From contig CAIYMF010000312.1 of the NCBI GenBank assembly GCA_903927265.1, positions 1-64,000 on the forward strand: a stretch of 64,000 nucleotides of DNA, in the 5' to 3' direction. The notes beneath the pieces were generated by a model. It was not told the DNA's origin and did no database searches. It saw nothing but the letters and a program-made list of their open reading frames with translations. Below are positions 21,366-57,864 of the stretch, in pieces. Origin of the DNA: an uncultured bacterium (GTDB lineage Bacteria > Actinomycetota > Actinomycetes > S36-B12 > CAIYMF01). The position numbers and the translations under genes were made by a program. How positions within the stretch are numbered: position 1 is the stretch's first letter; the number at the start of each line of letters is the position of its first letter.

Positions 21366-22172
21366 ATGGCTGTGCATGACCTCGTCACCGCTCTGTCATC
21401 GGCGACACTGTTCGATCTTGAGCATGATCGCTACACGGGCGCTGCAATCTACCCCGGACACTGGCCCGGTTTCGTGTACACGTTGCACCGACACCACGAA
21501 ACCGTCGAAGGTCAGCACCGCACGAGTGCATCGGGCACGATCATGATGGCCGAGCATTCGGGTACTCACATTGATGCGTTGTGCCATCAGGCACTCGACA
21601 TGGAAATGTTCGGCGGCATCCGGGTGACTCCCAGTGTTCAGACTCCACGAGGGTTTACTCAATTGGGTGTCGAGACCATCGCCCCCATCATGCGTCGAGG
21701 TGTGTTGCTCGATGTCGCGCGTGCGCGCGGGGTTGATTTCCTCGAAGCCGGCTATCTGGTGACCGCCGAAGATTTGCAGGCCGCAGTTGACGTGCACGGT
21801 GTCGTGATCGAGGAGGGTGACTGCATTCTCGTGCGCACCGGGTGGGGTCAAAACTTCGAAGACGCCGAGGCCTACCTCGATGCAGCGGGCATCAGCGCTG
21901 AAGGAGCCCAGTGGCTCGCGGATCACAAGCCGTTTCTCTGCGGCGCCGATAACGTGGCGTTCGATTACCCCGACAATGTCGACATTGAACTCGGGCTCCT
22001 GCCGTCGCACACCATTTTGATCGTGCGCAACGGCATCTACATCGTCGAGAACCTCAACCTTGAGGAACTCGCACACTCGGCACACAAGGAGTTCCTCTTC
22101 CTGTGTATGCCTCTCAAACTCCGCGGAGTCACGGGCTCACCCGTGCGTCCCGTGGCGATCGCACAGAACTGA
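21366..22172 (+). CDS. Cyclase family protein, copy 2, with canonical metal motif
   Basis: Metal-dependent hydrolase of 268 residues. Unlike the other three copies it has the canonical metal motif HSGTHIDALCH (about residues 59-69), the pattern of kynurenine formamidase and isatin hydrolase. It is also the shortest and closest to the typical family length. ATG 21366 follows AGGAAGG. It lies between the LhgO-like flavoprotein and the GlcG-like gene. It is predicted to open a cyclic amide, imide or lactone; the substrate is not identified. Confidence 0.9.
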   Translation: MAVHDLVTALSSATLFDLEHDRYTGAAIYPGHWPGFVYTLHRHHETVEGQHRTSASGTIMMAEHSGTHIDALCHQALDMEMFGGIRVTPSVQTPRGFTQLGVETIAPIMRRGVLLDVARARGVDFLEAGYLVTAEDLQAAVDVHGVVIEEGDCILVRTGWGQNFEDAEAYLDAAGISAEGAQWLADHKPFLCGADNVAFDYPDNVDIELGLLPSHTILIVRNGIYIVENLNLEELAHSAHKEFLFLCMPLKLRGVTGSPVRPVAIAQN

Positions 22173-40117: not shown

Positions 40118-40717
40118 TTAGGTTCGGGATCGGGGAGGTGAGGAATCGGCGCCGATCACGCTGAGCGCGAAATCGCAGTAGGTGCCAGCGAGAGTTCCCT
40201 CGCTCAGTGGGCCATCAGGGCGGAACCATCGGGCGATGCCGATGCCCATGTCGATGATCGCGTAGGCCGCGAGGTTCGTCGATTGGGTGCTGGCGCGGCC
40301 TTCGGCGACGGCCTGTTCGATCAAGGTGCGCCAGAGTTCGGTGTAGTGGCGGCGCATTTCCTTGACTTCAGATTGCCCTGGCTCCTCCAGAGCGGCGACT
40401 TCGGTCATCGCGATCTTCGATTCGTGGGCATAGCGCGTGTGATGGCGTACATGCACCTCAAAGCCGCGGCGGAACTTCTCGATCACGTCATCGGTGGTTG
40501 CGGTGGCATCCTCGAATTCGCGCGTGATGAGTGCGACATCGTCTTCGATGATGTCGACGAGCAACTGCTGTTTGGACTCAAGATGGTTATACAAACTTGG
40601 CGCGCGCATGTTCAGCCGCGCAGCGATCTCACGCATGCTGGTGCCGTGATAACCCCGTTCGTAGAACAGTTCGGTCGCCGCCTCGCGGATCTCGCGTGCA
40701 CGCGAGGGCTCGGTCAC
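40118..40717 (-). CDS. TetR family transcriptional regulator 2
   Basis: Repressor of 199 residues with N-terminal helix-turn-helix (FYERGYHGTSMREIAARLNM, RAPSLYNHLESKQQLLVDI), resembling KstR2-type acyl-CoA-sensing regulators. The recognition helix RAPSLYNHL differs from TetR 1 (TVASIYHHF). GTG 40717 follows AAAGGA. Operator-like site D (40775-40788) lies 58 bp upstream and site E is near the divergent ligase start, an autoregulation layout. Confidence 0.92.
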   Translation of the reverse strand: MTEPSRAREIREAATELFYERGYHGTSMREIAARLNMRAPSLYNHLESKQQLLVDIIEDDVALITREFEDATATTDDVIEKFRRGFEVHVRHHTRYAHESKIAMTEVAALEEPGQSEVKEMRRHYTELWRTLIEQAVAEGRASTQSTNLAAYAIIDMGIGIARWFRPDGPLSEGTLAGTYCDFALSVIGADSSPPRSRT

Positions 40718-40939: not shown

Positions 40940-42514
40940 ATGCAGGGCGCGTCAAAGTACCGACTCTTCGACACTCTCGACCGCACCGGACGCACTCATC
41001 GTGCAGCCTCAACCGTGGCTATCACTGCCGGTGGGCGAGACCAGTCCTTCGCTGAGCTTCGCGACCGCGCACTGCGGCTTGCCAATGGATTGATCGGACT
41101 CGGGGTGCGACCTGGATCGCGAGTCGGTGTGCTGATGAGCAATCGGCATGAGTGGACCGAGGCGTTGTTCGCAGTCGCGGCGAGCGGCGGCGTCTGCGTG
41201 CCGATCAACGTGCTGCTGCGCGGGCTCGAGGCGGGCTACATCATTGACGACAGCGACGTTGAGATTCTGATAGTCGATGAACGTGGCGAGCAGCCACTCG
41301 CCGAACTTCCTCGACTTCCTTCCACGATCATTACGGTGGGCGATGTCGTGGTGCCGGTGGGAGCCAACGTGCGCACGTTCGAGTCTGTGATTGAGTCAGG
41401 CGCTGCTGTGTACCCCAGTGTGCAAATTGGCGTCGAGGACGCCGTCATGACCTACTACACGTCGGGCACCACGGGGCGCTCGAAAGGTGCCACGCACTCG
41501 CATCAGGGCATCAATTGGAACACGATGTCGCAGGTGCACGACCTGTCCGTGCGTTCCAACGATCGGTACCTTGTGGTGCCGTCGCTGTCGTGGGCAGCTG
41601 GATTCCACGACGTGACGATGGCGTTGATGTGGAATGGCGGCACCAATGTGTTGATGCCGACCGGCGCGGCCACCATCGAGACGATCATCGATCAGGTGGT
41701 CGAGAATCGCATCACGCACACGCTGCTGGTGCCAGTCTTGTTGCGCGAACTTGCGGCGAACCCGTCGTTGCTTGCTCGACTGAGAGACAGCGAGTTGCGC
41801 TGGGTTCTCACGGGTGCTGAGCCGGTACCTGCGACTCTGACTAACGAACTCAACGCCGAACTGCCCGCGTGCGATGTAGTGCAGGGCTACGGCATGTCGG
41901 AGTTCCCGCTCATTGCCTCGCTGCTGCGTCCGGAAGAAGCTGTCGAGCACGCCGGCAAGGCTGGTCGCCCCACGTCGATTACGTCGATCATGGTGCAGAC
42001 ATCCGATGGCCAGATCACCGATGTCGGTGAGGGTGAAATCCTCACGCGATCGCCCGCAGCCATGCTGGGATACCACGGAATGGCCGAAGCGACAGAAGAG
42101 GCATTCCGTGATGGGTGGTTCCACACGGGTGACACAGGTCGCCTTGATGAAGAGGGCTTCCTCGCGGTCACCGGTCGTCAGAAGGACATGATCATTTCAG
42201 GCGGCATGAACATCTACCCGCGTGAGATTGAGGACGTCATCATCGCTCAGCTCGGTATCCGCGATGTGGCCGTCGTCGGTGTTCAGGACGATCGGTGGGG
42301 TGAAGTGCCCGTGGTGGTGCTGCTCGAAAGCGCCGCCGGTTCGGCCAACGACGTGATGAGGGTGTGCGAGGAACAATTGTCTTCGTACAAGCGACCCAAG
42401 CGTGTGATTGTGCGCGCCGAGCCATTCCCGCGTACTCCCAACGGCAAATTGCTCAAACGCGAGTTGGGCCCATGGGCGCAGGAGCAGATCACGGGGTCGG
42501 CCGAGCCGCAGTAG
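40940..42514 (+). CDS. AMP-dependent acyl-CoA synthetase/ligase
   Basis: ANL ligase of 524 residues: P-loop YYTSGTTGRSKGATHSHQG, QGYGMSEFPLI, hinge GRQKDMIISGGMNIYP and the catalytic lysine in TPNGKLLKREL. ATG 40940 follows GGGAGGA; the frame opens earlier (40901) but that start would include operator E. First gene of a long rightward run through to 53284 with very short spacings, so it probably supplies the CoA ester for the tandem ACADs, thiolase and dehydratase. Confidence 0.93.
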   Translation: MQGASKYRLFDTLDRTGRTHRAASTVAITAGGRDQSFAELRDRALRLANGLIGLGVRPGSRVGVLMSNRHEWTEALFAVAASGGVCVPINVLLRGLEAGYIIDDSDVEILIVDERGEQPLAELPRLPSTIITVGDVVVPVGANVRTFESVIESGAAVYPSVQIGVEDAVMTYYTSGTTGRSKGATHSHQGINWNTMSQVHDLSVRSNDRYLVVPSLSWAAGFHDVTMALMWNGGTNVLMPTGAATIETIIDQVVENRITHTLLVPVLLRELAANPSLLARLRDSELRWVLTGAEPVPATLTNELNAELPACDVVQGYGMSEFPLIASLLRPEEAVEHAGKAGRPTSITSIMVQTSDGQITDVGEGEILTRSPAAMLGYHGMAEATEEAFRDGWFHTGDTGRLDEEGFLAVTGRQKDMIISGGMNIYPREIEDVIIAQLGIRDVAVVGVQDDRWGEVPVVVLLESAAGSANDVMRVCEEQLSSYKRPKRVIVRAEPFPRTPNGKLLKRELGPWAQEQITGSAEPQ

Positions 42515-42516
42515 TT

Positions 42517-43653
42517 ATGGACCTCACGCTCAGCGCCGACGAATTGGCATTCCGCGACGAATTTCGCGCGTGGATCGCCGATCATCACCCAGGCTCGCCT
42601 CCGAGCAACGTCGAGGAGCGCTACTACTGGCGCTTGGAATGGCTGCGTGAACTCAACCGTGGTGGATTCGCGGCGATGCATTGGCCCAGTGAGTTTGGTG
42701 GCCGCGGGGCCACCGCGATGCTCAACGCGGTGTTTTTCATAGAGCTTGCGCGGGCGGGTGCACCCATTCCGGCCAATCACATTGCGACATTCATGGCTGG
42801 CCCCACGATCATGCAGTGGGGAACTGTCGAACAAAAAGAGCGTTACCTCGCCCCGATGCTGCGCGCTGACAACGTGTGGTGCCAAGGGTTCAGTGAGCCG
42901 GGGGCCGGATCCGATCTTGCTGCGGTTGCGACATTCGCTGCGCGCGACGGCGATGAGTTCGTCGTGAATGGGCAGAAGGTGTGGACCTCGGAAGCGCAGT
43001 ACGCGCATTTCTGTCTCCTGGTTACTCGCACCGATCGCTCGGTGGCGCAGCACAAGGGCCTGACCTATTTCATCCTTGATATGTCGAGCCCCGGCATCAC
43101 GCGTCGTCCGTTGCGGCAGCTGACCGGTGAATCAGAGTTCAACGAGTTGTTCTTCGACAATGTGCGCATCCCGGCCAGTTCTGTCGTCGGGGAGGTCGGA
43201 AACGGCTGGCGAGTGGCCATGACCACATTGATGCATGAGCGATCGATGATTGGCGCCGGATACGGAATTCGATTGCGCAATTACCTGACAGTCGTCGAGG
43301 AGCATTTGCGAGCACACGGACTGCTGAGCGATCCTGTAGTTGCCGATCGGTTCGCCGATCTTGAAATTCGCACCCGAGCACTAGAACTGTCGGCTCTGCG
43401 CCAAATCTCCGAAGCGCAAGCACGCGGGAGTGTGGGCTCGGAAGGGTCGATCCTCAAACTAATGTGGTCCGAAACCTACTCACGTCTGGCTGAGTTTGCC
43501 ATTGAGACGGTTGGCCCAGATGCGCTGGAAGACGGAAGTGGATGGGCGTGGGAGTACCTGCGCTCGCGTGCCTCAACAATCGAAGGTGGAACTTCCGACA
43601 TCTTGCGCAACATCGTTGCTGACCGCATTCTCGGCCTACCGCGAGCCAGGTGA
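42517..43653 (+). CDS. Acyl-CoA dehydrogenase, larger partner of a tandem pair
   Basis: Acyl-CoA dehydrogenase of 378 residues: QGFSEPGAGSDLAAV, GQKVWTSEAQYAHFC, MHERSMIGAGYG and C-terminal STIEGGTSDILRNIVADRILGLPR. The N-terminal start (LSADELAFRDEFRAWI) is like FadE proteins of actinobacterial side-chain degradation. It lies 2 bp after the ligase and 5 bp before a second, shorter ACAD, the layout of heteromeric alpha2-beta2 ACADs that act on bulky or ring-bearing acyl-CoAs. Confidence 0.93.
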   Translation: MDLTLSADELAFRDEFRAWIADHHPGSPPSNVEERYYWRLEWLRELNRGGFAAMHWPSEFGGRGATAMLNAVFFIELARAGAPIPANHIATFMAGPTIMQWGTVEQKERYLAPMLRADNVWCQGFSEPGAGSDLAAVATFAARDGDEFVVNGQKVWTSEAQYAHFCLLVTRTDRSVAQHKGLTYFILDMSSPGITRRPLRQLTGESEFNELFFDNVRIPASSVVGEVGNGWRVAMTTLMHERSMIGAGYGIRLRNYLTVVEEHLRAHGLLSDPVVADRFADLEIRTRALELSALRQISEAQARGSVGSEGSILKLMWSETYSRLAEFAIETVGPDALEDGSGWAWEYLRSRASTIEGGTSDILRNIVADRILGLPRAR

Positions 43654-43658
43654 TTGTC

Positions 43659-44672
43659 ATGAGATTCACGCTGTCTGAAGAACAGGCCGCCATTCGAGAT
43701 ATGGCACGCGAGGTACTTGCCGCCGAGTCGACTTTTGAACGAGTGCGTATCGCTGGCGAGGCGCGTCAGTACGACAGCGAATTGTGGGCGCTGCAGCGAT
43801 CGATGGGCTGGCCAGGTGTTGCAGTATCCGAACGGTGGGGTGGGCAGGGGCTCGGTTTGGTTGAGTTGTCTGTCATCTCAGAAGAGTGCGGCTACGCGTG
43901 CGCTTCCACGCCGTTGCTCGGCACTATCCTTGCGGCGACTTCACTAGCGGGTGCCGCTTCCAACGAACAGTGCGAGAGGTACTTGCCGTCACTCGCGGCG
44001 GGCGAATTCAGTGGCGCTGTGGCACTCATGGCGGACACCACGCCGGTGCCCGACGCCGGTGAAGCGGGACTGATCGTTGTTCTTGAGGGCTCGGGCGGAC
44101 ATGTGAGCCTGCAACCGGCGCAGCCCGTTGAGACGATCGACCCCACACTGCGATACGGCCGCGTTGTCGATCCATCTGCCGGTGAGCCCTTGAACCAGTC
44201 GTCAATCGCCTACGACTCGGCGTTAGTCGTCGTGTCCGCGCATCAACTTGGCCTTGCGCAGCGTGCGCTCGATTTGAGTGTCGCCTACACCTCGGTACGC
44301 GAGCAGTTCGGTGTGCCGGTTGCGACCTTCCAAGCAGTGTCACATCGGCTTGCTCAGGCCCACGTTGAACTCACTGCCGCGCGCTCGTTGGTGTACCAGG
44401 CGGCCTGGGCTGTTGAGGTGGGCGACAGCGAGTCGTCGGCCGCGGCCGCGCGTGCCAAGTCGTGGCTTGCGGAGGCGTCGCGAACGGTTACCGGCTCGGC
44501 TATTCACGCACACGGCGGCATCGGCTTTACCTGGGAAGCCAATCTGCACTGGTTGTTCAAACGCGCGTCCATGCTGGGCCCCTACCTCGGCAGTGCGCGA
44601 CAGCAGCGCGGCAGGTTGTTGGAAATGCTAGGCACTGCTCGGACTTCGTCTCACGAAACGGATCACTCATGA
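43659..44672 (+). CDS. Acyl-CoA dehydrogenase, shorter partner of a tandem pair
   Basis: Acyl-CoA dehydrogenase-fold protein of 337 residues, shorter than typical. FTLSEEQAAIRDMAREVL opens it; the flavin-loop region of the middle domain is reduced (EGSGGHVSLQPAQPVETI) and the C-terminus has HAHGGIGFTWEANLHWLFKRA. Such short members usually depend on the neighbouring full-length subunit for FAD binding or the catalytic base. ATG 43659 chosen over GTG 43650. Its stop overlaps the thiolase start by 4 nt. Confidence 0.92.
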   Translation: MRFTLSEEQAAIRDMAREVLAAESTFERVRIAGEARQYDSELWALQRSMGWPGVAVSERWGGQGLGLVELSVISEECGYACASTPLLGTILAATSLAGAASNEQCERYLPSLAAGEFSGAVALMADTTPVPDAGEAGLIVVLEGSGGHVSLQPAQPVETIDPTLRYGRVVDPSAGEPLNQSSIAYDSALVVVSAHQLGLAQRALDLSVAYTSVREQFGVPVATFQAVSHRLAQAHVELTAARSLVYQAAWAVEVGDSESSAAAARAKSWLAEASRTVTGSAIHAHGGIGFTWEANLHWLFKRASMLGPYLGSARQQRGRLLEMLGTARTSSHETDHS

Positions 44673-45841
44673 CGCACGCGTACATTACGACCGCCCTTCG
44701 CACTCCGGGAGGCCGCCGCGACGGTCAACTCTCGGGCTGGCATCCGGCCGACCTCGGCGGGTTCGTCATTGACGGGATTCTCGATCGGTCGGGTGTAGAC
44801 CCCGCCGCAATCGACGACGTCATCTTCGGATGTGTATCTCAGATCGGACCGCAGACCTTCAACATCGCGCGCACAAGTGTGATGAGTTCGCGGCTGCCTG
44901 ATTCAGTGCCTGGCGTCTCCATCGATCGCCAGTGCGGCTCGTCACTGCAGGCAACGCAGTTCGCGGCCCAAGCGGTGATGTCAGGAACTCAGGATCTCAT
45001 CATCGCGGGTGGTGTCGAGATTATGAGTGCCGTTCCGATCATGTCCGCCATGGTGGTGGCCCAGGCCGCCGGAATGCAGAGCCCCTTTGAGGGCACTCGC
45101 ATCAGTGCGCGTTATCCGGATGAAGGATTCAGCCAGTTCGTGGGCGCGGAACGGGTAGGCGAGAAGTACGGCGTTACTCGCGACGAACTTCTTGATTTCG
45201 CTGTGAGTAGCCACGAGCGAGCCATCGCGGCCCGAGATGCCGGCCGCTTCGACGACGAAATGCTTCCGGTGCCGATACAGATGGCCGATGGAACGACCAT
45301 TCTGCACGCGACTGATGAAGGTGTGCGCACGCCCAATCGCGAGAAGATGGAGACGCTTCCGTCGCTACTTCCTGATGGACTGATTAATGCCGCTATGGCC
45401 AGTCAAGTATGCGATGGCGCGTCCGCGGTGCTCGTCTCCAGCGAGGCGGCTCTGCAGCAGCACGGACTGGTTCCGCTTGCGCGCATCGTGGCGATGGAGG
45501 CCTATGGCTCGGACCCCGTCATGGTGTTGGAAGGACCGATCCCCGCCACAGAGCGCATGCTCACGCGAGCCGGGCTCACTATCGACGACATTGATTTGTA
45601 CGAGGTGAATGAGGCGTTCGGAACTGTGCCGCTGGCGTGGGCCAAGGCTCTGGGTGCGGATCTCGTCAAACTCAATGTCAATGGTGGGGCGCAATCGCTG
45701 GGTCACCCACTCGGCGCCACCGGAACCAAGTTGATCGCCACCCTCGTGCACGAACTGCGTCGACGCGGTGATCGCTACGGACTAATTGCGATCTGCGAAG
45801 GACTCGGAACGGCTAACGCCATGATCATCGAAGCACTGTGA
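44669..45841 (+). CDS. Thiolase (acetyl-CoA acetyltransferase family)
   Basis: Thiolase of 390 residues with acyl-binding Cys89 (DRQCGSSLQA), NEAFG, the His motif SLGHPLGATG, and the second Cys in ICEGLGTAN. It cleaves a 3-oxoacyl-CoA with CoA in degradation. ATG 44669 overlaps the ACAD stop (ATGA). It lies 25 bp before the AbfD-like gene, so both work in one pathway. Confidence 0.95.
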   Translation: MTHAYITTALRTPGGRRDGQLSGWHPADLGGFVIDGILDRSGVDPAAIDDVIFGCVSQIGPQTFNIARTSVMSSRLPDSVPGVSIDRQCGSSLQATQFAAQAVMSGTQDLIIAGGVEIMSAVPIMSAMVVAQAAGMQSPFEGTRISARYPDEGFSQFVGAERVGEKYGVTRDELLDFAVSSHERAIAARDAGRFDDEMLPVPIQMADGTTILHATDEGVRTPNREKMETLPSLLPDGLINAAMASQVCDGASAVLVSSEAALQQHGLVPLARIVAMEAYGSDPVMVLEGPIPATERMLTRAGLTIDDIDLYEVNEAFGTVPLAWAKALGADLVKLNVNGGAQSLGHPLGATGTKLIATLVHELRRRGDRYGLIAICEGLGTANAMIIEAL

Positions 45842-45866: not shown

Positions 45867-47411
45867 ATGACTGTTGCCGATGCGCAGGCGCGCACAACAA
45901 TCGCACCGAACGGTCAGGAACGACGCGTTGAATCAGCCGACGAGATCTGGGCTCGCATGCCCTACATCCGCAACGGTGGCGACTACCTCGAGTCCTTACG
46001 TAACAGGGGCACTTCACTGTTCATGTTCGGCGAGCGCATCGACGAGCCGGCTGATCACCCGATCATCACGCCCTCGATCAACGCATTGCGTGCCACGTAT
46101 GACCTCGCGATCGACGAGCCCGAGTTGGCTTCGGCGCACTCACCGCTCATCGACGACACCGTCAACCGTTTCCTACACATCGTTGAGGGTCCTGAGGATC
46201 TGCAGAAGAAGCATTCGATGCAGCGCAGGCTGGGCCAGATCACCGGCACCTGCTTCCAGCGGTGCACCGGCCTTGACTCGATCTCGGTGATGCATTCGAT
46301 TACTTACGACCTGGACGCGGCTAACGGAACCCCGTATCACGAGCGTTTCCTAGCGTTCTTGCGCGAGGCTCAGCGCCACAACATTCTCATCGCCGCCGGA
46401 ATGACCGACCCGAAGGGTGACCGATCAAAGGCGCCATCCGAGCAGGCCAATCCCGACCTGTTCCTGCATGTGTCCGGCCGCAACGACGAGGGCATCTTCA
46501 TTCGTGGTGCGAAAGCGCATATGACTGGCGGGTGGAACCAGCACTGGATCTGTGTGCTGCCGACGATGAACCTACGCGAGTCTGATGCTGACTACGCGGT
46601 AGGTGTGATGGTGCCGGGCGATGCCGACGGAATCACCTACATCTATGGGCGCCAATCCTCTGACACCCGGGCACTTGAGCCGGGAACCATGGACAAGGGC
46701 AATGCCGAATACGGTGGCCAGGAAGTGCTCGTGCACTTCGACGACGTGTTCATTCCGTACGAGCACGTGCTTCTCGATGGTGAATGGTCGATGGCTCAGA
46801 CCCTCGTTTCGCGCTTCACCTCCTATCACCGCGCGAGTTACATCTGTAAGACCGGTCTCGGCGATGTGCTGATCGGTGCGGCCGGCGAGGTCGCCGATGC
46901 CAATGGTGTCTCGAAGGCGGCACATGTGCGCGACAAACTCGTTGAGATGACGCATTTGAACGAGACCATCGCGTCGTCGTCGATTGCCTCGGCCGCCAAA
47001 GCGAATCAACTCGATTCGGGTATCTGGATGAATGACGAAATGCTGGCCAATGTCTGCAAGCACAATGTCACCCGCTTCCCGTACGAGATTGCTCGACTTG
47101 CCCAGGATCTCGCGGGCGGACTCATGGTGACGATGCCGTCAGAGGCTGATTTCCGTTCGGAGGAAGTGGGCGAGTTGATCACGGCATTGCTCGCGGGACG
47201 AGAGGGTGTGTCAACTGAGCACCGTATGCGCATTATGCGTTTGATTGAGAACCTCACTCTCGGCCGCAACGCCGTGGGCTATCTCACCGAGTCAATGCAT
47301 GGGGCCGGATCGCCGCAGGGACAACGAATTCAGATCATGCGCGGGATGGACCTCGACACTAAGCGGGCACTCGCACGGGCCCTCGCTGGAATCGAGGACG
47401 ACCCGTCGTGA
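45867..47411 (+). CDS. 4-hydroxybutyryl-CoA dehydratase-like protein (AbfD/HpaB family)
   Basis: Protein of 514 residues in the HpaB/AbfD flavoprotein family. AbfD converts 4-hydroxybutyryl-CoA to crotonyl-CoA by a ketyl-radical route using FAD and a [4Fe-4S] cluster. AbfD cluster and active-site residues are present: TCFQRC (Cys129, Cys133, Gln131), YHRASYICK (His321, Tyr325, Cys327, Lys328), FGGQE-equivalent YGGQE (Glu286), and TESMHGAGSP. True HpaB monooxygenases lack these cysteines. The His-to-Cys spacing is one residue shorter than in the clostridial enzyme (HRQSYGGCK). ATG 45867 follows AAGGAGGA. The stop overlaps the next start by 4 nt. Closely related substrates, or vinylacetyl-CoA isomerisation, are possible. 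Confidence 0.88.
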   Translation: MTVADAQARTTIAPNGQERRVESADEIWARMPYIRNGGDYLESLRNRGTSLFMFGERIDEPADHPIITPSINALRATYDLAIDEPELASAHSPLIDDTVNRFLHIVEGPEDLQKKHSMQRRLGQITGTCFQRCTGLDSISVMHSITYDLDAANGTPYHERFLAFLREAQRHNILIAAGMTDPKGDRSKAPSEQANPDLFLHVSGRNDEGIFIRGAKAHMTGGWNQHWICVLPTMNLRESDADYAVGVMVPGDADGITYIYGRQSSDTRALEPGTMDKGNAEYGGQEVLVHFDDVFIPYEHVLLDGEWSMAQTLVSRFTSYHRASYICKTGLGDVLIGAAGEVADANGVSKAAHVRDKLVEMTHLNETIASSSIASAAKANQLDSGIWMNDEMLANVCKHNVTRFPYEIARLAQDLAGGLMVTMPSEADFRSEEVGELITALLAGREGVSTEHRMRIMRLIENLTLGRNAVGYLTESMHGAGSPQGQRIQIMRGMDLDTKRALARALAGIEDDPS

Positions 47412-48565
47412 CCGACGCATCGCGACGTCCACCACTCGCTGGCCTGCGGGTCATCGAGTTGGCTGGTATCGGGCCGGGACCGTTCGCCGGCATGATGCTG
47501 GCCGATCTCGGAGCTGAGGTCATCACCGTCGATCGCCTCGGTGGCAATCCGTCGGCCACGATTGGCCACAGCATTCTGTTTCGCAGTCGTCGCTCGGTGA
47601 CCATTGATTTGAAGTCACCGCACGGTGTGGAGGCGCTGCTTCGACTGTGTGAGAAGTCGGATGCGTTGATCGAAGGCTTTCGACCCGGTGTCGCTGAGCG
47701 TCTGGGTATCGGGCCGAACGAGTGCATGGCCCGCAACCCCGCCCTCGTGTACGGCCGCATTACCGGGTGGGGGCAAGAAGGCCCGCTTGCGCGCACCGCC
47801 GGGCACGACCTCAATTACATCGCCCTCACGGGCGCACTGCATGCGATCGGTCATGAAGGGCAGCGGCCGACGGTTCCGCTGAACCTCATTGGTGATTTTG
47901 GTGGGGGAGGGATGCTCTTGGCATTCGGGGTTCTCGCAGGTGTACTCAGCGCCCGCGCAGACGGTCGCGGAACCGTGATTGACGCGGCCATGATTGATGG
48001 CGCATCGGCGCTGATGGCGATGTTCCACGGGCTACGGTCCGAAGGACTGTTCGACGATGAACGTGGAACGCACACTCTCGATGGGGGCGCGCATTTCTAC
48101 GACGTCTACGAGACGGCAGATGGTCGCTTCGTTAGCATCGGCGCACTTGAACCTCAGTTCTACGTGCAGTTGTGCGATCTGCTCGGTCTCGATGATGAGA
48201 TTCGCAATGCGCAGTACGACCTCGTGCGCTGGCCCGAGTTTTCCGAACGAATCGCTGCGGCGGTGCGGCAACACACTCGCGATGAACTCGACGTGATCTT
48301 CTCTGGCTCTGACGCCTGTTATGCGCCGGTGTTGGCGATGGAAGAAGTGGCGCGGCACCCCCATCACGTCGCGCGTGCAACTTTTGTGGTCGAGGGCAAT
48401 GACCTTCAACCCGCGCCCGCGCCGCGGTTCAACGGTCACCCCCCGACAGTCCCCACTAGACGACCCGCGTCAGGTGTCGACACCGTCGCGGTGCTTCGCG
48501 AATGCGGATTCACTGACACCGAAATTACGACCATGTCCGACGCCGGCGTTATCGACGCGGTCTGA
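47408..48565 (+). CDS. CaiB/BaiF family protein, alpha-methylacyl-CoA racemase-like
   Basis: Class III CoA-transferase-fold protein of 385 residues. Details match alpha-methylacyl-CoA racemase rather than CoA-transferase: IGPGPFAGMMLADLGAEV, the His segment GHDLNYIALTGALHAIG, DFGGGGMLLAFGVLAG, and GALEPQFY carrying the catalytic Glu. It would interconvert (2R)- and (2S)-methylacyl-CoA so that a stereospecific dehydrogenase can act. GTG 47408 overlaps the dehydratase stop. This suggests an alpha-methyl-branched substrate, as from isoprenoids or sterol side chains. Confidence 0.9.
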   Translation: MTDASRRPPLAGLRVIELAGIGPGPFAGMMLADLGAEVITVDRLGGNPSATIGHSILFRSRRSVTIDLKSPHGVEALLRLCEKSDALIEGFRPGVAERLGIGPNECMARNPALVYGRITGWGQEGPLARTAGHDLNYIALTGALHAIGHEGQRPTVPLNLIGDFGGGGMLLAFGVLAGVLSARADGRGTVIDAAMIDGASALMAMFHGLRSEGLFDDERGTHTLDGGAHFYDVYETADGRFVSIGALEPQFYVQLCDLLGLDDEIRNAQYDLVRWPEFSERIAAAVRQHTRDELDVIFSGSDACYAPVLAMEEVARHPHHVARATFVVEGNDLQPAPAPRFNGHPPTVPTRRPASGVDTVAVLRECGFTDTEITTMSDAGVIDAV

Positions 48566-48582: not shown

Positions 48583-49491
48583 ATGACCAACGCTTACGAC
48601 GGTACAGGCGCCAACAGTCCGCAGTGGTGGCCATCGCGTTACGGAGCTGACGACGAACTTGGTTCTGCCAATGAGCTCACTGCTGAACGCACACTGGCCG
48701 CGTTATCGATTCCAAAGCAGGGGCGTGTGCTGCAGCTCGGACAGATGCTCACTGACCAGTCGCCAGGTTACGGGCAGAGGTTCTTCAAGCAGGTGATTTT
48801 GGCGCACGAGACCGCGATGCCGATCTGTCCGGAGGGGTCTCGGCTGACCTGTTTCGAAGAATCGGTGACAACGACTTTCCAGATTGGATCGCACCTCGAT
48901 CTACTGGGTCACATCGGCATCGATGGGCGCTTCTACAACGGCATTCATTTCACCGACTTCTATACGCCAACGAAGTTGCTCAAGTTCGGCCCTGAGACGG
49001 TTCCGTCGTGTGTCACGCGAGGAGTGTGTCTCGATATTGCCGGCTTGATGGGCGTCGAGATGCTCGAGCCCACGTTCGAAGTCACCCCCCAACACCTTGA
49101 GCAGGCATGTGACCGTCAATCAGTTGAGGTGCGTGCAGGAGACGCACTCCTGATTCACACCGGCTGGGGTGCGCTCTGGAATGTCGATGCCAAGCGATTC
49201 ACCTCGGCCGAGCCGGGTCCTGGCTGGGATGCTGCTCACTGGATTACCGATCGGCGCGTGTCGTTGGTGGGCGCCGACACCTGGGGTGTCGAAGTGTTCC
49301 CCACGGTTGACCCGTTGCGCGTCTTTGTGGCGCACCAACACTGGATCACCGAGACCGGAACGTACATCGCTGAGAATGTGAATACGGCCGAACTTGCTCG
49401 CGGCGGGCACTCAGAGTTCCTGTACATGATGTCTCCGATTCGCGCGCAAGGATCCACCGGTTCGATGATCGCTCCCGTTGCGATTGTGTGA
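48583..49491 (+). CDS. Cyclase family protein, copy 3
   Basis: PF04199-type protein of 302 residues. The metal motif reads FQIGSHLDLLGHIGIDG, near HxGxHxDxxxH but with the first His replaced. Later VGADTWGVEV and a C-terminal GSTGSMIAPVAIV match the family. ATG 48583 follows AAGGGAGA. It is inserted between the racemase-like and E1 genes of the acyl-CoA operon with 17-bp and 12-bp spacing, so it belongs to the same pathway and may hydrolyse a lactone or ring intermediate. Confidence 0.88.
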   Translation: MTNAYDGTGANSPQWWPSRYGADDELGSANELTAERTLAALSIPKQGRVLQLGQMLTDQSPGYGQRFFKQVILAHETAMPICPEGSRLTCFEESVTTTFQIGSHLDLLGHIGIDGRFYNGIHFTDFYTPTKLLKFGPETVPSCVTRGVCLDIAGLMGVEMLEPTFEVTPQHLEQACDRQSVEVRAGDALLIHTGWGALWNVDAKRFTSAEPGPGWDAAHWITDRRVSLVGADTWGVEVFPTVDPLRVFVAHQHWITETGTYIAENVNTAELARGGHSEFLYMMSPIRAQGSTGSMIAPVAIV

Positions 49492-49503
49492 GTGGCTGCT
49501 TCC

Positions 49504-51489
49504 ATGAGCACCGTTGGCGAGTACTCGGCAGAACAACTGCTAGAGATGTATCGACGCATGCTGGTCATTCGTCGATTCGAGCAGCGAACGGCCGAGTTGT
49601 ATCGCGCCACCGAAGTTCCCGGCTTCGTGCACACATCGATCGGTCAGGAGGCGACGGCTGTTGGTGCCTGTTGGCATCTTGAGACGACCGACGTCATCAC
49701 GTCGAACCATCGCGGTCACGGCCACTGTCTGGCCAAGGGGATGCAGCCGGGGCCTATGTTTGCCGAACTCATGGGTAAGGATTCCGGAACCTGCCATGGC
49801 CGTGGTGGATCGATGCACATTGCCGATCCAGACATCGGAGTATTCGGGGCCAATGGCATCGTTGGCGCTGGCATTCCAATTGCTGTCGGTGCTGCCACCT
49901 CAATGCGGCTGCGCAACAACGGCAGCGTTGCGTTGTCGTTCTTCGGTGATGGGGCAGTGGCCCAGGGTGCGTTTCATGAAGGTGTCAACCTCGCCGCCGT
50001 CTGGAACCTGCCCATCGTGTTTGTGTGCGAGAACAACCACTACGCCGAGTTCTCGAGCACAGCTTCGCAGCATCGTGTGAGTCTGGCTGAACGCGCACGT
50101 GGTTACGGCCTTGAGTTCATTGCCGTCGATGGAAACGACGTGCGCGCTGTGAGCGAAGCGACGGGGAGGGCGATTGAGTCGGTGCGCGCTGGTGGAGTCC
50201 CCGTGATCGTCGAGGCGCTCACGTACCGCTGGCACGGTCACTACGAAGGCGACCCCGAGAGGTATCGCGATCGTGACGAAGTGGCTGAGTGGAAAGAACG
50301 TGACCCCTTGGTCGGCTGTGCCGAGGTTCTCATGTCTCTCGGTGTTGACTCCACAGTCATTGAACTCATTCACTCCGAGGTTGAGAACGAGATCGAGAGT
50401 GCCATTGAGCAAGCGAGGCAGGCTCCGTCCCCGCCGGTGTCGAGTTTGATGGACTTTGTCGTCGATACCTCCGGTGATGGCGGCGTTGAGCCCGAAGCAT
50501 TCGAGCCGAATGGCACGTTCAAGATGATGCACGCAGTGCGTGAGGCCATCGAAAGTGAAATGCGCGCCGATCCGGATGTGTTTATGGCCGGAATAGATAT
50601 CGGACTCGGTGGCAGTGTCTTCGGACTTTTCCGCGGAATGCACGAAGAGTTTCCTGGTCGTGTGCGCGACACCCCCATTTCTGAGACCGCGATCGTTGGC
50701 ACGGCCGTCGGTGCGGCGATGGCGGGTATGAAACCAATCGTTGAAGTGATGTACCTCGACTTCATCGGCGTGTGCCTTGACCAGATCATGAACCAGGCGG
50801 CCAAGCTGCGGTACATGACCGGCGGTCGTGCGCAGATGTCACTGGTCATTCGTACTCAGATGGGTGCAGGGCGATCCTCAGGAAGTCAGCACTCGCAGAG
50901 CCTGGAAGCCATGCTGGCGCACATTCCCGGCTTGCGTGTGGTGATGCCGTCCAACCCTGCTGATGCCTACGGACTGCTACGTTCAGCGATTCGCGACCCC
51001 AATCCGGTGGTGTTCATCGAGAACCGGCTGCTCTACGGAATGGCGGGTGACCGACCCCCGGTCGATTACCTCGTTCCGATCGGTCGCGCCGCTATCGTGC
51101 GACCCGGAACAGACGTCACCGTGGTGAGTTGGTCGCGCATGCTGCACGCCGCGGTTGAAGCCGCCGAGAGTCTAGCCGGCGAAGGTATCAATGCTGAGGT
51201 CATTGACCTGCGCACCATTGCGCCACTCGATCGGGCAACAGTGCTTGCATCGCTTGAGCGCACGCATCGTCTGGTGATTGTTCATGAGGCAGTGCGTGAT
51301 TTCGGAGTTGGCGCCGAACTGGCGGCACTGGCGGCAGGCGAGGGCTTCGACAGTCTTCGAGCTCCGGTGGTGCGGGTTGCGCCGCCGTTCACCCCGGCTC
51401 CCTACGCGCCGGTGCTGGAAGCCGAGTGGCTACCGACCTCGTCGTCGATTTCCGATGCCATTCGCGCACTTGTGAGGCGAGATTCATGA
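49504..51489 (+). CDS. Fused E1 alpha/beta dehydrogenase (2-oxoacid/acetoin type), second copy
   Basis: Thiamine-diphosphate E1 of 661 residues with alpha and beta parts fused. Alpha (1-320): SNHRGHGHCLAKGM, CHGRGGSMHI, ThDP motif GDGAVAQGAFHEGVN...ENN. Beta (345-661): GIDIGLGGSVFGLFRGMHE, TPISETAIVGTAVGAAMAG. Unlike the copy at 5296-7476 there is no E2 gene beside it; it may borrow that E2 or use another acceptor. GTG 49492 is an alternative start. It is shorter than the other E1 and closer to acetoin dehydrogenase E1. Embedded in the acyl-CoA operon. Confidence 0.92.
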   Translation: MSTVGEYSAEQLLEMYRRMLVIRRFEQRTAELYRATEVPGFVHTSIGQEATAVGACWHLETTDVITSNHRGHGHCLAKGMQPGPMFAELMGKDSGTCHGRGGSMHIADPDIGVFGANGIVGAGIPIAVGAATSMRLRNNGSVALSFFGDGAVAQGAFHEGVNLAAVWNLPIVFVCENNHYAEFSSTASQHRVSLAERARGYGLEFIAVDGNDVRAVSEATGRAIESVRAGGVPVIVEALTYRWHGHYEGDPERYRDRDEVAEWKERDPLVGCAEVLMSLGVDSTVIELIHSEVENEIESAIEQARQAPSPPVSSLMDFVVDTSGDGGVEPEAFEPNGTFKMMHAVREAIESEMRADPDVFMAGIDIGLGGSVFGLFRGMHEEFPGRVRDTPISETAIVGTAVGAAMAGMKPIVEVMYLDFIGVCLDQIMNQAAKLRYMTGGRAQMSLVIRTQMGAGRSSGSQHSQSLEAMLAHIPGLRVVMPSNPADAYGLLRSAIRDPNPVVFIENRLLYGMAGDRPPVDYLVPIGRAAIVRPGTDVTVVSWSRMLHAAVEAAESLAGEGINAEVIDLRTIAPLDRATVLASLERTHRLVIVHEAVRDFGVGAELAALAAGEGFDSLRAPVVRVAPPFTPAPYAPVLEAEWLPTSSSISDAIRALVRRDS

Positions 51490-51532: not shown

Positions 51533-52297
51533 ATGAGCGACTCCGTCCTGGTTGAGGATCGCGGTCCGGTGCGCATCATCACCATCAACCGGCCCGAGGT
51601 GCGTAACGCGATCAACCGCGCGACATCGGAGGGCCTTGCGGCGGCGATGCACGACCTCGATGAGCGAGACGATCTCACCGTCGCCATCCTCACCGGAGCC
51701 GGTGGTGGGTTCAGTGCGGGCATGGATCTCAAGGCCTTCGGCCGTGGCGAAGACCCCCATGTCGAACCGGGAGGTTTCGGCGGATTCACGCAGAAGCCAC
51801 CAGCGAAGCCGTTGATTGCTGCGGTCGAGGGATTTGCTCTGGCGGGCGGATTCGAACTCGCACTTGCCTGCGATCTGATTGTGGCCGCTGATGATTCGCG
51901 CTTCGGCATTCCTGAAGTCAGTCGTGGGCTCGTCGCTGCAGCGGGAGGTCTACTGCGCCTCCCCGCTCGCATCCCGCGCAACGTCGCGATGGAAATGGCA
52001 CTGACTGGCCGTCCGATCAGTGCCATTCGTGCTCACGACATGGGGCTGGTCAACCGACTCGCCCCGTCGGGTACCGCCCTTGATGTCGCCGTAGAGTTAG
52101 CGGGAGAAATCATCGTGAACGGGCCCATGGCATTAGCCGTCAGCAAGCGGGTCATCAACGACTCCGCTGACTGGCCCGACTCCGAGGCGTGGGCTCGTCA
52201 GCACGAGTACGTCGTGGCGATTGAATCCTCAGATGACGCGCGAGAAGGTGCGCTGGCCTTTGTCGAAAAGCGGACTCCGGAATGGACGGGACACTAA
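51533..52297 (+). CDS. Enoyl-CoA hydratase/isomerase family protein
   Basis: Crotonase-fold protein of 254 residues: RPEVRNAINRATSEGL, oxyanion loop GGFSAGMDLKAFGRG, GFALAGGFELALACDLIVA, and GIPEVSRGLVAAAGG with one catalytic-type Glu. ATG 51533 follows GAAGGG. It is 3 bp before the 3-hydroxyacyl-CoA dehydrogenase, so together they hydrate and oxidise the enoyl-CoA. Confidence 0.94.
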   Translation: MSDSVLVEDRGPVRIITINRPEVRNAINRATSEGLAAAMHDLDERDDLTVAILTGAGGGFSAGMDLKAFGRGEDPHVEPGGFGGFTQKPPAKPLIAAVEGFALAGGFELALACDLIVAADDSRFGIPEVSRGLVAAAGGLLRLPARIPRNVAMEMALTGRPISAIRAHDMGLVNRLAPSGTALDVAVELAGEIIVNGPMALAVSKRVINDSADWPDSEAWARQHEYVVAIESSDDAREGALAFVEKRTPEWTGH

Positions 52298-52300
52298 GTA

Positions 52301-53284
52301 ATGACCACGATTTCATCGATCACTGTCGTTGGTGGCGGCTACATGGGTGGCGGCATTGCTCAGGTGTGCGTCCTGGCCGGATACCCGTGCGTGATCGCCG
52401 ACGCAACAGCAGAGGCGGCGCAATCGTCGTTGGCGCGCCTCATCGAAGAGGCTCGTATCTTTGAGGAACAAGGACTCTTCGCGCCAGGTAGCACCCAGGT
52501 CATCACGCAAGGAATTCGCGCCGCAGACAGTATCGAACAAGCCGTTGCCGATGCGGATTACATCGTTGAGGCCGTCCCTGAACGCTTGGATATCAAGGCG
52601 GATGCACTGGGACGCGCTAGTGCGGCAGCGCGACCCGACGCCATTATTGCTTCAAACACATCGGCAATGCCGATCGAGAAGCTTGCCAGCCTCGTCACCG
52701 GACCAGACCGATTCCTCGGAGTGCATTGGATGAATCCCGCGCCCTTCGTTCCGGGTGTTGAAATCATTCCTGCGTCCATGACGCGTCCTGATGTGGTCGA
52801 AGGGGCCGAGGCGCTCATTCGATCAGTGGGTAAGTCACCGTCGCGCGTCAGCGACCAGGCGGGATTCGTTGCCAATCGCCTTCAATACGCGCTCTTTCAT
52901 GAAGCAGTGCGCATGGTCGAAGAAGGTACTGCGACCCCCACAGAGATTGACGAGGTAGTCAGTAACTCGTTCGGATTCCGACTGCCCTTCTTCGGACCGT
53001 TCGCTACAGCCGACATGGCCGGCCTTGATGTGTACGTCGGTGCCTACGAAAGCTTCCACGAAGCGTACGGCGATCGGTTCGCGCCACCCGCCCTGCTACT
53101 CGATCGCGTCTCAGCGGGCGACACGGGACTGAAGTCAGGTGGGGGATTCACCGGAATGGACGCGTCGAAAATCGCGGACATCGTTCGCTATCGAAACCGC
53201 GCGTACGCAGCACTCTCGGCACTACGTGCTGAACTCGGACCGGTACCCGGTCGTCGCGGTGGCGACGAAGGCCACACTCCGTGA
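52301..53284 (+). CDS. 3-hydroxyacyl-CoA dehydrogenase
   Basis: NAD-dependent dehydrogenase of 327 residues. N-terminal Rossmann motif VVGGGYMGGGIAQV, NTSAMPIEKLAS, catalytic His region FLGVHWMNPAPFVPGVE, then a C-terminal dimerisation domain (FVANRLQYALFHEAVRMVEEG). A complete, unfused enzyme of beta-oxidation. It converges on the lactonase-like gene with a 5-bp gap, ending the long rightward operon. Confidence 0.95.
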   Translation: MTTISSITVVGGGYMGGGIAQVCVLAGYPCVIADATAEAAQSSLARLIEEARIFEEQGLFAPGSTQVITQGIRAADSIEQAVADADYIVEAVPERLDIKADALGRASAAARPDAIIASNTSAMPIEKLASLVTGPDRFLGVHWMNPAPFVPGVEIIPASMTRPDVVEGAEALIRSVGKSPSRVSDQAGFVANRLQYALFHEAVRMVEEGTATPTEIDEVVSNSFGFRLPFFGPFATADMAGLDVYVGAYESFHEAYGDRFAPPALLLDRVSAGDTGLKSGGGFTGMDASKIADIVRYRNRAYAALSALRAELGPVPGRRGGDEGHTP

Positions 53285-56859: not shown

Positions 56860-56910
56860 TCGGTTCGCGAACGAGACGTCAGGCGATTGCCGGCGGGAAG
56901 GAAGGGCGCA

Positions 56911-57864
56911 ATGACGCAGGAAATCAATATCGAGTTGGTGCGCGAGATGGCGCTGAAGTACCGCAACTGGGGACGATGGGGTGCTGACGACCAGCTCGGT
57001 TCGCTCAACTTTGTCACCGATGAGATGCGCGCGCACGCGATGACATTGCCGCGCCGTGGGAAGGTGTTCTCTCTCGCGTTGCCCCTTGATGTCAACGGCC
57101 CGATGGTCGGCGCGCACGGCCGCGTTAACCCCTATCACTTCATGATTTGGGACGGCGGCGATTTCGAGGCGGGCGCACAGGACTTCATCTCCGCGATGCG
57201 TTACACCGATGATGCCGTGTTCCTCGTGCTGCAAAGTTCGACCCAATGGGATTCGCTCGCTCACATCTTCTTCGACGGTCAGATGTACAACGGGCACGGT
57301 CCTGAGAAGGTGTCGAGTCGCGGGGCGTCGGTCAACAGCATGACCAACGTGCGCGACAAGGCGGTAGGCCGCGGGGTGCTGCTCGACATCGCGCGCTACA
57401 AGGAGTTGCCCTGGCTTCCGACAAGTTACGCGATCACCAAGGAAGACCTCGAGGGCTGTGCTCAGAAGCAAGGTGTTGAGGTTGGTGAGGGTGACTTCGT
57501 GCTGTTGCGCACCGGTCAGATGGCCGAGCGGCGCGCGGCTGGTTCGTGGGGTGATTACGCCGGTGGCCCGGCACCTGGAATGGGCATCACCTGCGCCGAC
57601 TACTTCTGCCCTCGCAATGTTGCTGCGGTCGCGACCGACACCTGGGGCACCGAGGTACTTCCGAACGAGACACCGGATGTTTTCCAGCCCCTGCACTGCA
57701 TCATGCTCGTGAACGCAGGAATCATCCTGGGTGAGATGTGGGATATGGAGGAACTTGCCGAAGATTGTGCGGCTGAAGGCACCTACGACTTCCTGCTCGT
57801 GGCGCCACCGCTCACGATCACCGGTTCGGTCGGTTCTCCCGTCAACCCGCAGATCATGCGCTAG
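56911..57864 (+). CDS. Cyclase family protein, copy 4
   Basis: PF04199-type protein of 317 residues, closest to copy 1: both begin with a NWGxWGxDDxxGSLNY-like stretch and have a modified metal region (SSTQWDSLAHIFFDG here). It retains TDTWGTEV and the C-terminal GSVGSPVNPQIMR. ATG 56911 follows GGAAGGAAGGG. It precedes a DUF6282-type amidohydrolase by 39 bp. Probable ring- or lactone-opening hydrolase. Confidence 0.88.
   Translation: MTQEINIELVREMALKYRNWGRWGADDQLGSLNFVTDEMRAHAMTLPRRGKVFSLALPLDVNGPMVGAHGRVNPYHFMIWDGGDFEAGAQDFISAMRYTDDAVFLVLQSSTQWDSLAHIFFDGQMYNGHGPEKVSSRGASVNSMTNVRDKAVGRGVLLDIARYKELPWLPTSYAITKEDLEGCAQKQGVEVGEGDFVLLRTGQMAERRAAGSWGDYAGGPAPGMGITCADYFCPRNVAAVATDTWGTEVLPNETPDVFQPLHCIMLVNAGIILGEMWDMEELAEDCAAEGTYDFLLVAPPLTITGSVGSPVNPQIMR

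What the first reader, a model, noticed from the sequence alone, without database searches (positions are those of the whole stretch)
45867..47411. AbfD-like protein with a shortened His-Cys cluster motif
Residues matching the AbfD [4Fe-4S] ligands and active site are all present: Cys129, Cys133, His321, Cys327, Gln131, Tyr325, Lys328, Glu286. However His321 to Cys327 spans six positions; the clostridial enzyme has seven (His292, Cys299). This one-residue deletion next to the cluster is read directly in the codons. It may define a subgroup with a different substrate or a more oxygen-tolerant site, in an apparently aerobic actinobacterium.
Basis: partly seen in the sequence, partly recalled or inferred. 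Interest (0 to 1): 0.7.

Follow-up and report, generated by a model that had tools for sequence, protein, structure and literature searches.

The report
Aerobic-type 4-hydroxybutyryl-CoA dehydratase gene
The gene encodes a genuine iron-sulphur/flavin 4-hydroxybutyryl-CoA dehydratase, and its shortened metal-binding motif is not new: every member of one large clade found in oxygen-respiring microbes has it, including an archaeal enzyme whose structure was solved and deposited as oxygen-tolerant.

Summary
The 514-aa protein at 45867-47411 keeps every AbfD cluster ligand and catalytic residue, and its His321-Cys327 spacing is one residue shorter than His292-Cys299 of clostridial AbfD. It is not a peculiarity of this protein. 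The solved enzyme 6VJR (N. maritimus, titled 'oxygen tolerant' in the PDB) has the same deletion (HRRSYVC). All 46 six-spacing sequences I collected form one clade; on a smaller set, with the motif columns removed, the clade keeps UFBoot 98. More distant relatives have seven, so the deletion is derived. All 25 short-motif bacterial genomes tested hit a heme-copper oxidase (24 above cut-off); 0 of 25 long-motif genomes do above cut-off. The deletion itself says nothing about substrate. Separately, the gene overlapping the dehydratase, labelled 'CoA-transferase III', is by sequence and catalytic residues an alpha-methylacyl-CoA racemase. It is also linked to the dehydratase in Patulibacter and many Alcanivorax. 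This leaves open a 2-methyl-branched substrate for the bacterial subclade. Verdict: new member of a known kind, in an aerobic acyl-CoA catabolic operon.

The parts
45867..47411 (+). 4-hydroxybutyryl-CoA dehydratase/vinylacetyl-CoA delta-isomerase family protein (514 aa), short-motif (His-x5-Cys) type
46251..46265 (+). codons of C129-F-Q-R-C133 (two [4Fe-4S] ligands and Gln131)
   Evidence: translation, alignment to 1U8V C99/Q101/C103
46827..46850 (+). codons of H321-R-A-S-Y325-I-C327-K328, the shortened His-Cys motif
   Evidence: translation, alignment
47408..48565 (+). alpha-methylacyl-CoA racemase (AMACR/MCR type); 4-bp overlap with the dehydratase gene; Pfam label CoA_transf_3
   Evidence: best PDB match M. 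tuberculosis MCR 1x74 at 390 bits against about 134 for CoA-transferases; H126/D127/D156/E241 conserved
44669..45841 (+). thiolase (acetyl-CoA C-acyltransferase); ORF starts at 44462, likely start 44669
51533..52297 (+). enoyl-CoA hydratase (could hydrate the enoyl-CoA product)
52301..53284 (+). 3-hydroxyacyl-CoA dehydrogenase
40940..42514 (+). acyl-CoA ligase (AMP-forming), first gene of the operon; start uncertain (40901 TTG or 40940 ATG)
42517..43653 (+). acyl-CoA dehydrogenase (weakly PimC-like); ORF can start at 42364, likely start 42517
43650..44672 (+). acyl-CoA dehydrogenase (weakly IpdE2-like, below the family cut-off)
48583..49491 (+). cyclase-family (PF04199) hydrolase
49492..51489 (+). 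fused alpha/beta E1 component of a 2-oxoacid dehydrogenase
40118..40717 (-). TetR-type regulator, divergent from the operon

Best explanation
[quoted passage not shown] It removes water from a 4-hydroxyacyl-CoA (4-hydroxybutyryl-CoA, or a 2-methyl homologue) by alpha-deprotonation, one-electron oxidation by the flavin, beta-H removal and loss of the gamma-hydroxyl held at the cluster iron, giving the 2-enoyl-CoA. Operon neighbours (enoyl-CoA hydratase, 3-hydroxyacyl-CoA dehydrogenase, thiolase) can carry the product to acetyl-CoA and acetyl-/propionyl-CoA; a ligase activates acids and a 2-methylacyl-CoA racemase equilibrates an alpha-branched intermediate. The one-residue deletion (Gly-Gly to a single Val/Ile/Met between the catalytic Tyr and the ligand Cys) arose once, and the branch carrying it is associated with aerobic hosts. 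Shown by sequence: membership, ligand set, deletion, single origin, lifestyle association, operon. Inferred: cluster assembly, activity, substrate, pathway, any effect on oxygen tolerance.
For: 60% identity to 6VJR and 53% to 1U8V; phmmer 1e-199 and 3e-158. All ligand and catalytic residues present. AF2 mean pLDDT 93.9, TM 0.92 and rmsd 1.3 to 6VJR, 'Oxygen tolerant Archeal 4HBD from N. maritimus'. 6VJR has the same short motif. Short clade monophyletic: 46 sequences, SH support 0.91; UFBoot 98 in a 48-sequence set with the motif masked. Heme-copper oxidase: 24 of 25 short-motif genomes above cut-off plus one fragment, against 0 of 25 long-motif. Only four positions cleanly separate short from long type: AbfD 271, 289, 297, 298. 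Operon enzymes.
Against: No biochemical data for any bacterial short-motif member was found. The lifestyle association is phylogenetically confounded (one origin of the deletion), and the long-motif genomes tested are all from one phylum. Archaeal members other than 6VJR could not be fetched, so anaerobic archaea with the short motif (or aerobes with the long one) cannot be excluded. The substrate is not determined; the racemase neighbour is not expected in plain 4-hydroxybutyrate breakdown.
Confidence: 0.85

Rival explanations
1. The bacterial HRASY subclade, including this protein, has a shifted substrate: a 2-methyl-branched 4-hydroxyacyl-CoA (or 2-methyl-3-enoyl-CoA) supplied as one epimer by the adjacent alpha-methylacyl-CoA racemase, yielding a tiglyl-type CoA that is cleaved to propionyl-CoA and acetyl-CoA.
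For: The racemase with intact H126/D156/E241 directly overlaps the dehydratase gene in the window and lies near or next to it in Patulibacter (L004) and many Alcanivorax loci in a different gene order. A more distant 4HBD homologue on a Rhodococcus opacus plasmid also sits next to a racemase. Subclade-specific changes occur at positions nearly invariant elsewhere: M106L, N110S, G147A, Q189M, A218M, G351A and Q/R294A, several close in sequence to C103, T190 and H292.
Against: Other members of the same subclade (Svornostia, Haliea, Saprospiraceae) have no adjacent racemase. Racemases of 50-57% identity also occur in genomes without a detected dehydratase, such as G023 and G038. The operon contains ligase and acyl-CoA dehydrogenases that may need the racemase for another step. 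No structure with coordinates was available to place the changed residues.
Confidence: 0.27
2. [quoted passage not shown]
For: Same short-motif branch as the N. maritimus cycle enzyme; bacterial HP/HB cycles have been proposed from genomes (PMC9802188; PMC4195664).
Against: The operon context is catabolic: TetR, ligase, acyl-CoA dehydrogenases, racemase, 2-oxoacid dehydrogenase, within an island of other catabolic enzymes and a branched-chain-type ABC importer. The gene is found over cut-off only in one genus of its family, apart from one distant cysteine-free homologue, which suggests an accessory role. The other cycle enzymes were not searched for.
Confidence: 0.05
3. A flavin-dependent phenol monooxygenase of the HpaB type that happens to retain cysteines.
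For: Same Pfam families (PF11794/PF03241) and fold.
Against: TIGR02309/TIGR02310 scores are far below their cut-offs (131 and 54 bits against 480 and 885). About 20% identity to HpaB structures against 59% to 4HBD. Cluster ligands and 4HBD catalytic residues are strictly conserved across the clade.
Confidence: 0.02

Closest known systems
4-hydroxybutyryl-CoA dehydratase of Nitrosopumilus maritimus (PDB 6VJR)
   Same: 60% identity, same ligand set, same one-residue-short His-Cys motif, same clade, model rmsd 1.3 A
   Different: Archaeal CO2-fixation cycle; motif reads HRRSYVC rather than HRASYIC; lacks the bacterial-subclade changes (Q189M, G147A, N110S, A218M and others)
AbfD of Clostridium aminobutyricum (PDB 1U8V)
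   Same: 53% identity, all ligands and catalytic residues, fold
   Different: Long motif HRQSYGGC, from an anaerobe; the related Cetobacterium gene lies next to an acetyl-CoA hydrolase/transferase-family gene, not a racemase
Short-motif dehydratases of Patulibacter, Svornostia, Alcanivorax, Haliea, Sphingomonas, Saprospiraceae
   Same: 63-79% identity, same motif, aerobic hosts
   Different: Operon neighbours vary; methionine sulphoxide reductase genes msrA and msrB lie between racemase and dehydratase in some Alcanivorax loci
HpaB-type 4-hydroxyphenylacetate 3-monooxygenases
   Same: Pfam families and fold
   Different: About 20% identity, different reaction; the two distant cysteine-free homologues examined here lack the ligands

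Membership tests
4-hydroxybutyryl-CoA dehydratase (EC 4.2.1.120 / 5.3.3.3) | Three Cys and one His [4Fe-4S] ligands (C99, C103, H292, C299) | tested here: met
   C129, C133, H321, C327
4-hydroxybutyryl-CoA dehydratase (EC 4.2.1.120 / 5.3.3.3) | Catalytic residues Q101, T190, E257, Y296, K300, E455 | tested here: met
   Q131, T220, E286, Y325, K328, E475
4-hydroxybutyryl-CoA dehydratase (EC 4.2.1.120 / 5.3.3.3) | Phylogenetic placement among solved members, not among HpaB | tested here: met
   Trees; PDB scores
4-hydroxybutyryl-CoA dehydratase (EC 4.2.1.120 / 5.3.3.3) | Acyl-CoA-dehydrogenase-like fold matching 1U8V/6VJR | tested here: met
   TM 0.90 and 0.92, rmsd 1.4 and 1.3
4-hydroxybutyryl-CoA dehydratase (EC 4.2.1.120 / 5.3.3.3) | Bound FAD and [4Fe-4S], homotetramer, activity on 4-hydroxybutyryl-CoA | not testable with these tools
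   Needs purified protein
Oxygen-tolerant (N. maritimus-type) 4HBD | Shared short His-x5-Cys motif and clade with 6VJR | tested here: met
Oxygen-tolerant (N. maritimus-type) 4HBD | Measured oxygen tolerance | not testable with these tools
   Only an indirect association with heme-copper oxidases
Alpha-methylacyl-CoA racemase (neighbour 47408-48565) | Catalytic H126, D156, E241 (MCR numbering) | tested here: met
   51% identity to MCR, 390 bits
HpaB monooxygenase | Curated family score (TIGR02309/TIGR02310) | tested here: not met
   131 and 54 bits against cut-offs 480 and 885
HP/HB carbon-fixation cycle | Presence of the remaining cycle enzymes | not tested
   Not searched

The most novel reading that the evidence does not exclude
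A bacterial subclade of oxygen-tolerant 4HBDs, widespread in aerobes, has been recruited to dehydrate 2-methyl-branched 4-hydroxyacyl-CoAs and works with a dedicated alpha-methylacyl-CoA racemase, because the radical dehydratase is specific for one C2 epimer. This would be a new aerobic catabolic route that uses [4Fe-4S]/flavin radical chemistry.
Probability: 0.2. Interest if true: 0.6.

Novelty: new member of a known kind. Interest (0 to 1): 0.35.

Why it matters
It shows that the motif length next to the cluster is a simple diagnostic that, in the genomes sampled, separates the 4HBDs of aerobes from those of anaerobes across phyla, and turns the open question of how this oxygen-sensitive cluster enzyme works in air into a small mutational test (reinsert or delete the one residue). 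It also corrects a misleading 'CoA-transferase' neighbour label to racemase, which points to a possible unrecognised substrate for the bacterial enzymes.

Tried and rejected
(1) Reading the neighbour 47408-48565 as a CoA-transferase that activates 4-hydroxybutyrate (Pfam/NCBIfam label): rejected when the PDB comparison gave MCR racemases at 390 bits against about 134, with all racemase residues conserved. (2) The deletion as unique to this protein or an assembly error: rejected. (3) Searching viral contigs for archaeal relatives: the single-sequence scan found none; the profile scan gave one long-motif bacterial-type gene (L106). (4) Literature: the N. maritimus structure preprint is not in the library (no bioRxiv papers held) and the 2014 PNAS paper is not held; no held paper mentions both the racemase and the dehydratase. 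(7) The Proteobacteria sample (398 genomes) gave only the seed genome, so the census there rests.

Full report
Observation. The ORF 45867-47411 on the + strand encodes 514 aa with a clear Shine-Dalgarno sequence. Pfam assigns HpaB_N and HpaB, but the HpaB equivalogs score far below their cut-offs. Against the PDB the best matches are 6VJR (1e-199) and 1U8V, AbfD (3e-158); HpaB-type monooxygenases follow at 5e-31 or worse. Aligned to AbfD, all four cluster ligands and the catalytic residues are present, and His-to-Cys spacing is six instead of seven.

Is the short motif special? 6VJR carries the same deletion (HRRSYVC). The Foldseek table gives its title as 'Oxygen tolerant Archeal 4hydroxybutyrylCoA dehydratase (4HBD) from N. 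maritimus'. [quoted passage not shown] I could not read it. From memory, its abstract attributes tolerance to closed tunnels produced by four conserved substitutions; I could not check which positions these are. Every relative collected at 57% identity or more has the short motif; every type-1 relative at 54% or less has HRQSYGGC.

History of the deletion. A FastTree of the family puts all 46 six-spacing sequences, 6VJR included, in one clade with support 0.913. An IQ-TREE of 48 sequences with AbfD columns 288-300 removed keeps the 26 short-motif members together with UFBoot 98. Cluster-ligand-bearing relatives outside the AbfD-like group have seven (HRHSYTGC, HRPTTGGC), so seven is ancestral and the deletion derived. 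One paralogue (L089) reads HRENGC, spacing five, and lacks the tyrosine.

Link to oxygen. I searched 25 genomes with short-motif and 25 with long-motif genes for COX1 (PF00115): 24 of 25 short-motif genomes exceed the cut-off and the remaining one has a fragment; none of the 25 long-motif genomes exceeds it. The window's own genome has two heme-copper oxidases, so 'apparently aerobic' is supported. The short-motif clade spans Actinomycetota, Proteobacteria, Bacteroidota and an archaeon. Because the deletion arose once and the tested long-motif genomes are all of one phylum, this is an association and not proof of cause. Only four alignment positions cleanly separate short from long type: AbfD 271, 289, 297 and 298, three of them within ten residues of the ligands H292/C299.

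Structure. AF2 with 35 aligned homologues gives mean pLDDT 93.9 and pTM 0.91. Foldseek gives TM 0.92, rmsd 1.3 A to 6VJR and TM 0.90, rmsd 1.4 A to 1U8V, against rmsd of 3 A or more for monooxygenases.

Context. The gene lies in a run of same-strand, partly overlapping genes: acyl-CoA ligase, two acyl-CoA dehydrogenases, thiolase, dehydratase, racemase, PF04199 hydrolase, fused 2-oxoacid dehydrogenase E1, enoyl-CoA hydratase and 3-hydroxyacyl-CoA dehydrogenase, with a divergent TetR. The hydratase, dehydrogenase and thiolase suffice in principle to turn crotonyl-CoA, or a methyl-branched homologue, into acetyl-CoA units; this is inference. The wider window is a catabolic island. Within the family only the two genomes of this genus carry the gene, apart from one distant cysteine-free homologue, consistent with horizontal acquisition.

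The neighbour. The gene overlapping the 3' end is labelled CoA_transf_3 by Pfam. Its best solved relatives are alpha-methylacyl-CoA racemases (390 bits; CoA-transferases at most about 134), and H126, D127, D156 and E241 of MCR are conserved in it and in its counterparts in Patulibacter and Alcanivorax. The pairing occurs in three genera or groups with two gene orders, and beside a distant 4HBD homologue in Rhodococcus opacus. In Sphingomonas the adjacent CaiB-family protein lacks H126 and E241. Other subclade members have no adjacent racemase, and racemases of this type also occur in genomes without a detected dehydratase. The subclade also shows changes at otherwise nearly invariant positions. 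A methyl-branched substrate is therefore open but unproven.

Verdict. The motif is a known-enzyme feature of the aerobic/archaeal 4HBD branch, not a new deviation. The protein is a new member of a known kind; the racemase linkage and the motif-lifestyle correlation are the parts worth following.

Noticed in passing
47408-48565: Gene labelled CoA-transferase family III by Pfam is an alpha-methylacyl-CoA racemase by PDB similarity and catalytic residues.
   Followed up: yes
L009 6582-7621, L013 4819-5967 (Alcanivorax): Methionine sulphoxide reductase genes msrA and msrB lie between the racemase and the short-motif dehydratase (Pfam on L009; L013 by sequence clustering).
   Followed up: partly
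L089 (G122:C3:26238-27874): A second 4HBD paralogue in an actinobacterial genome has a still shorter motif, HRENGC (spacing 5), without the catalytic tyrosine.
   Followed up: no
L078 (Rhodococcus opacus PD630 plasmid 9): A distant 4HBD homologue without the cluster cysteines (HRFTAINY) sits next to an alpha-methylacyl-CoA racemase and acyl-CoA ligases.
   Followed up: partly
780-1805, 21366-22172, 48583-49491, 56887-57864: Four PF04199 cyclase-family hydrolases in one 64-kb window, among many catabolic genes.
   Followed up: no
L106 (IMGVR_UViG_3300009566_000006): A contig filed as viral carries a long-motif AbfD gene, an unusual cargo or a misclassified bacterial contig.
   Followed up: no
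L002 (CAMCUD010000005.1): Contig titled Bifidobacterium breve MAG carries a 79% identical short-motif dehydratase that groups with Svornostia and Patulibacter; the name is probably wrong.
   Followed up: no
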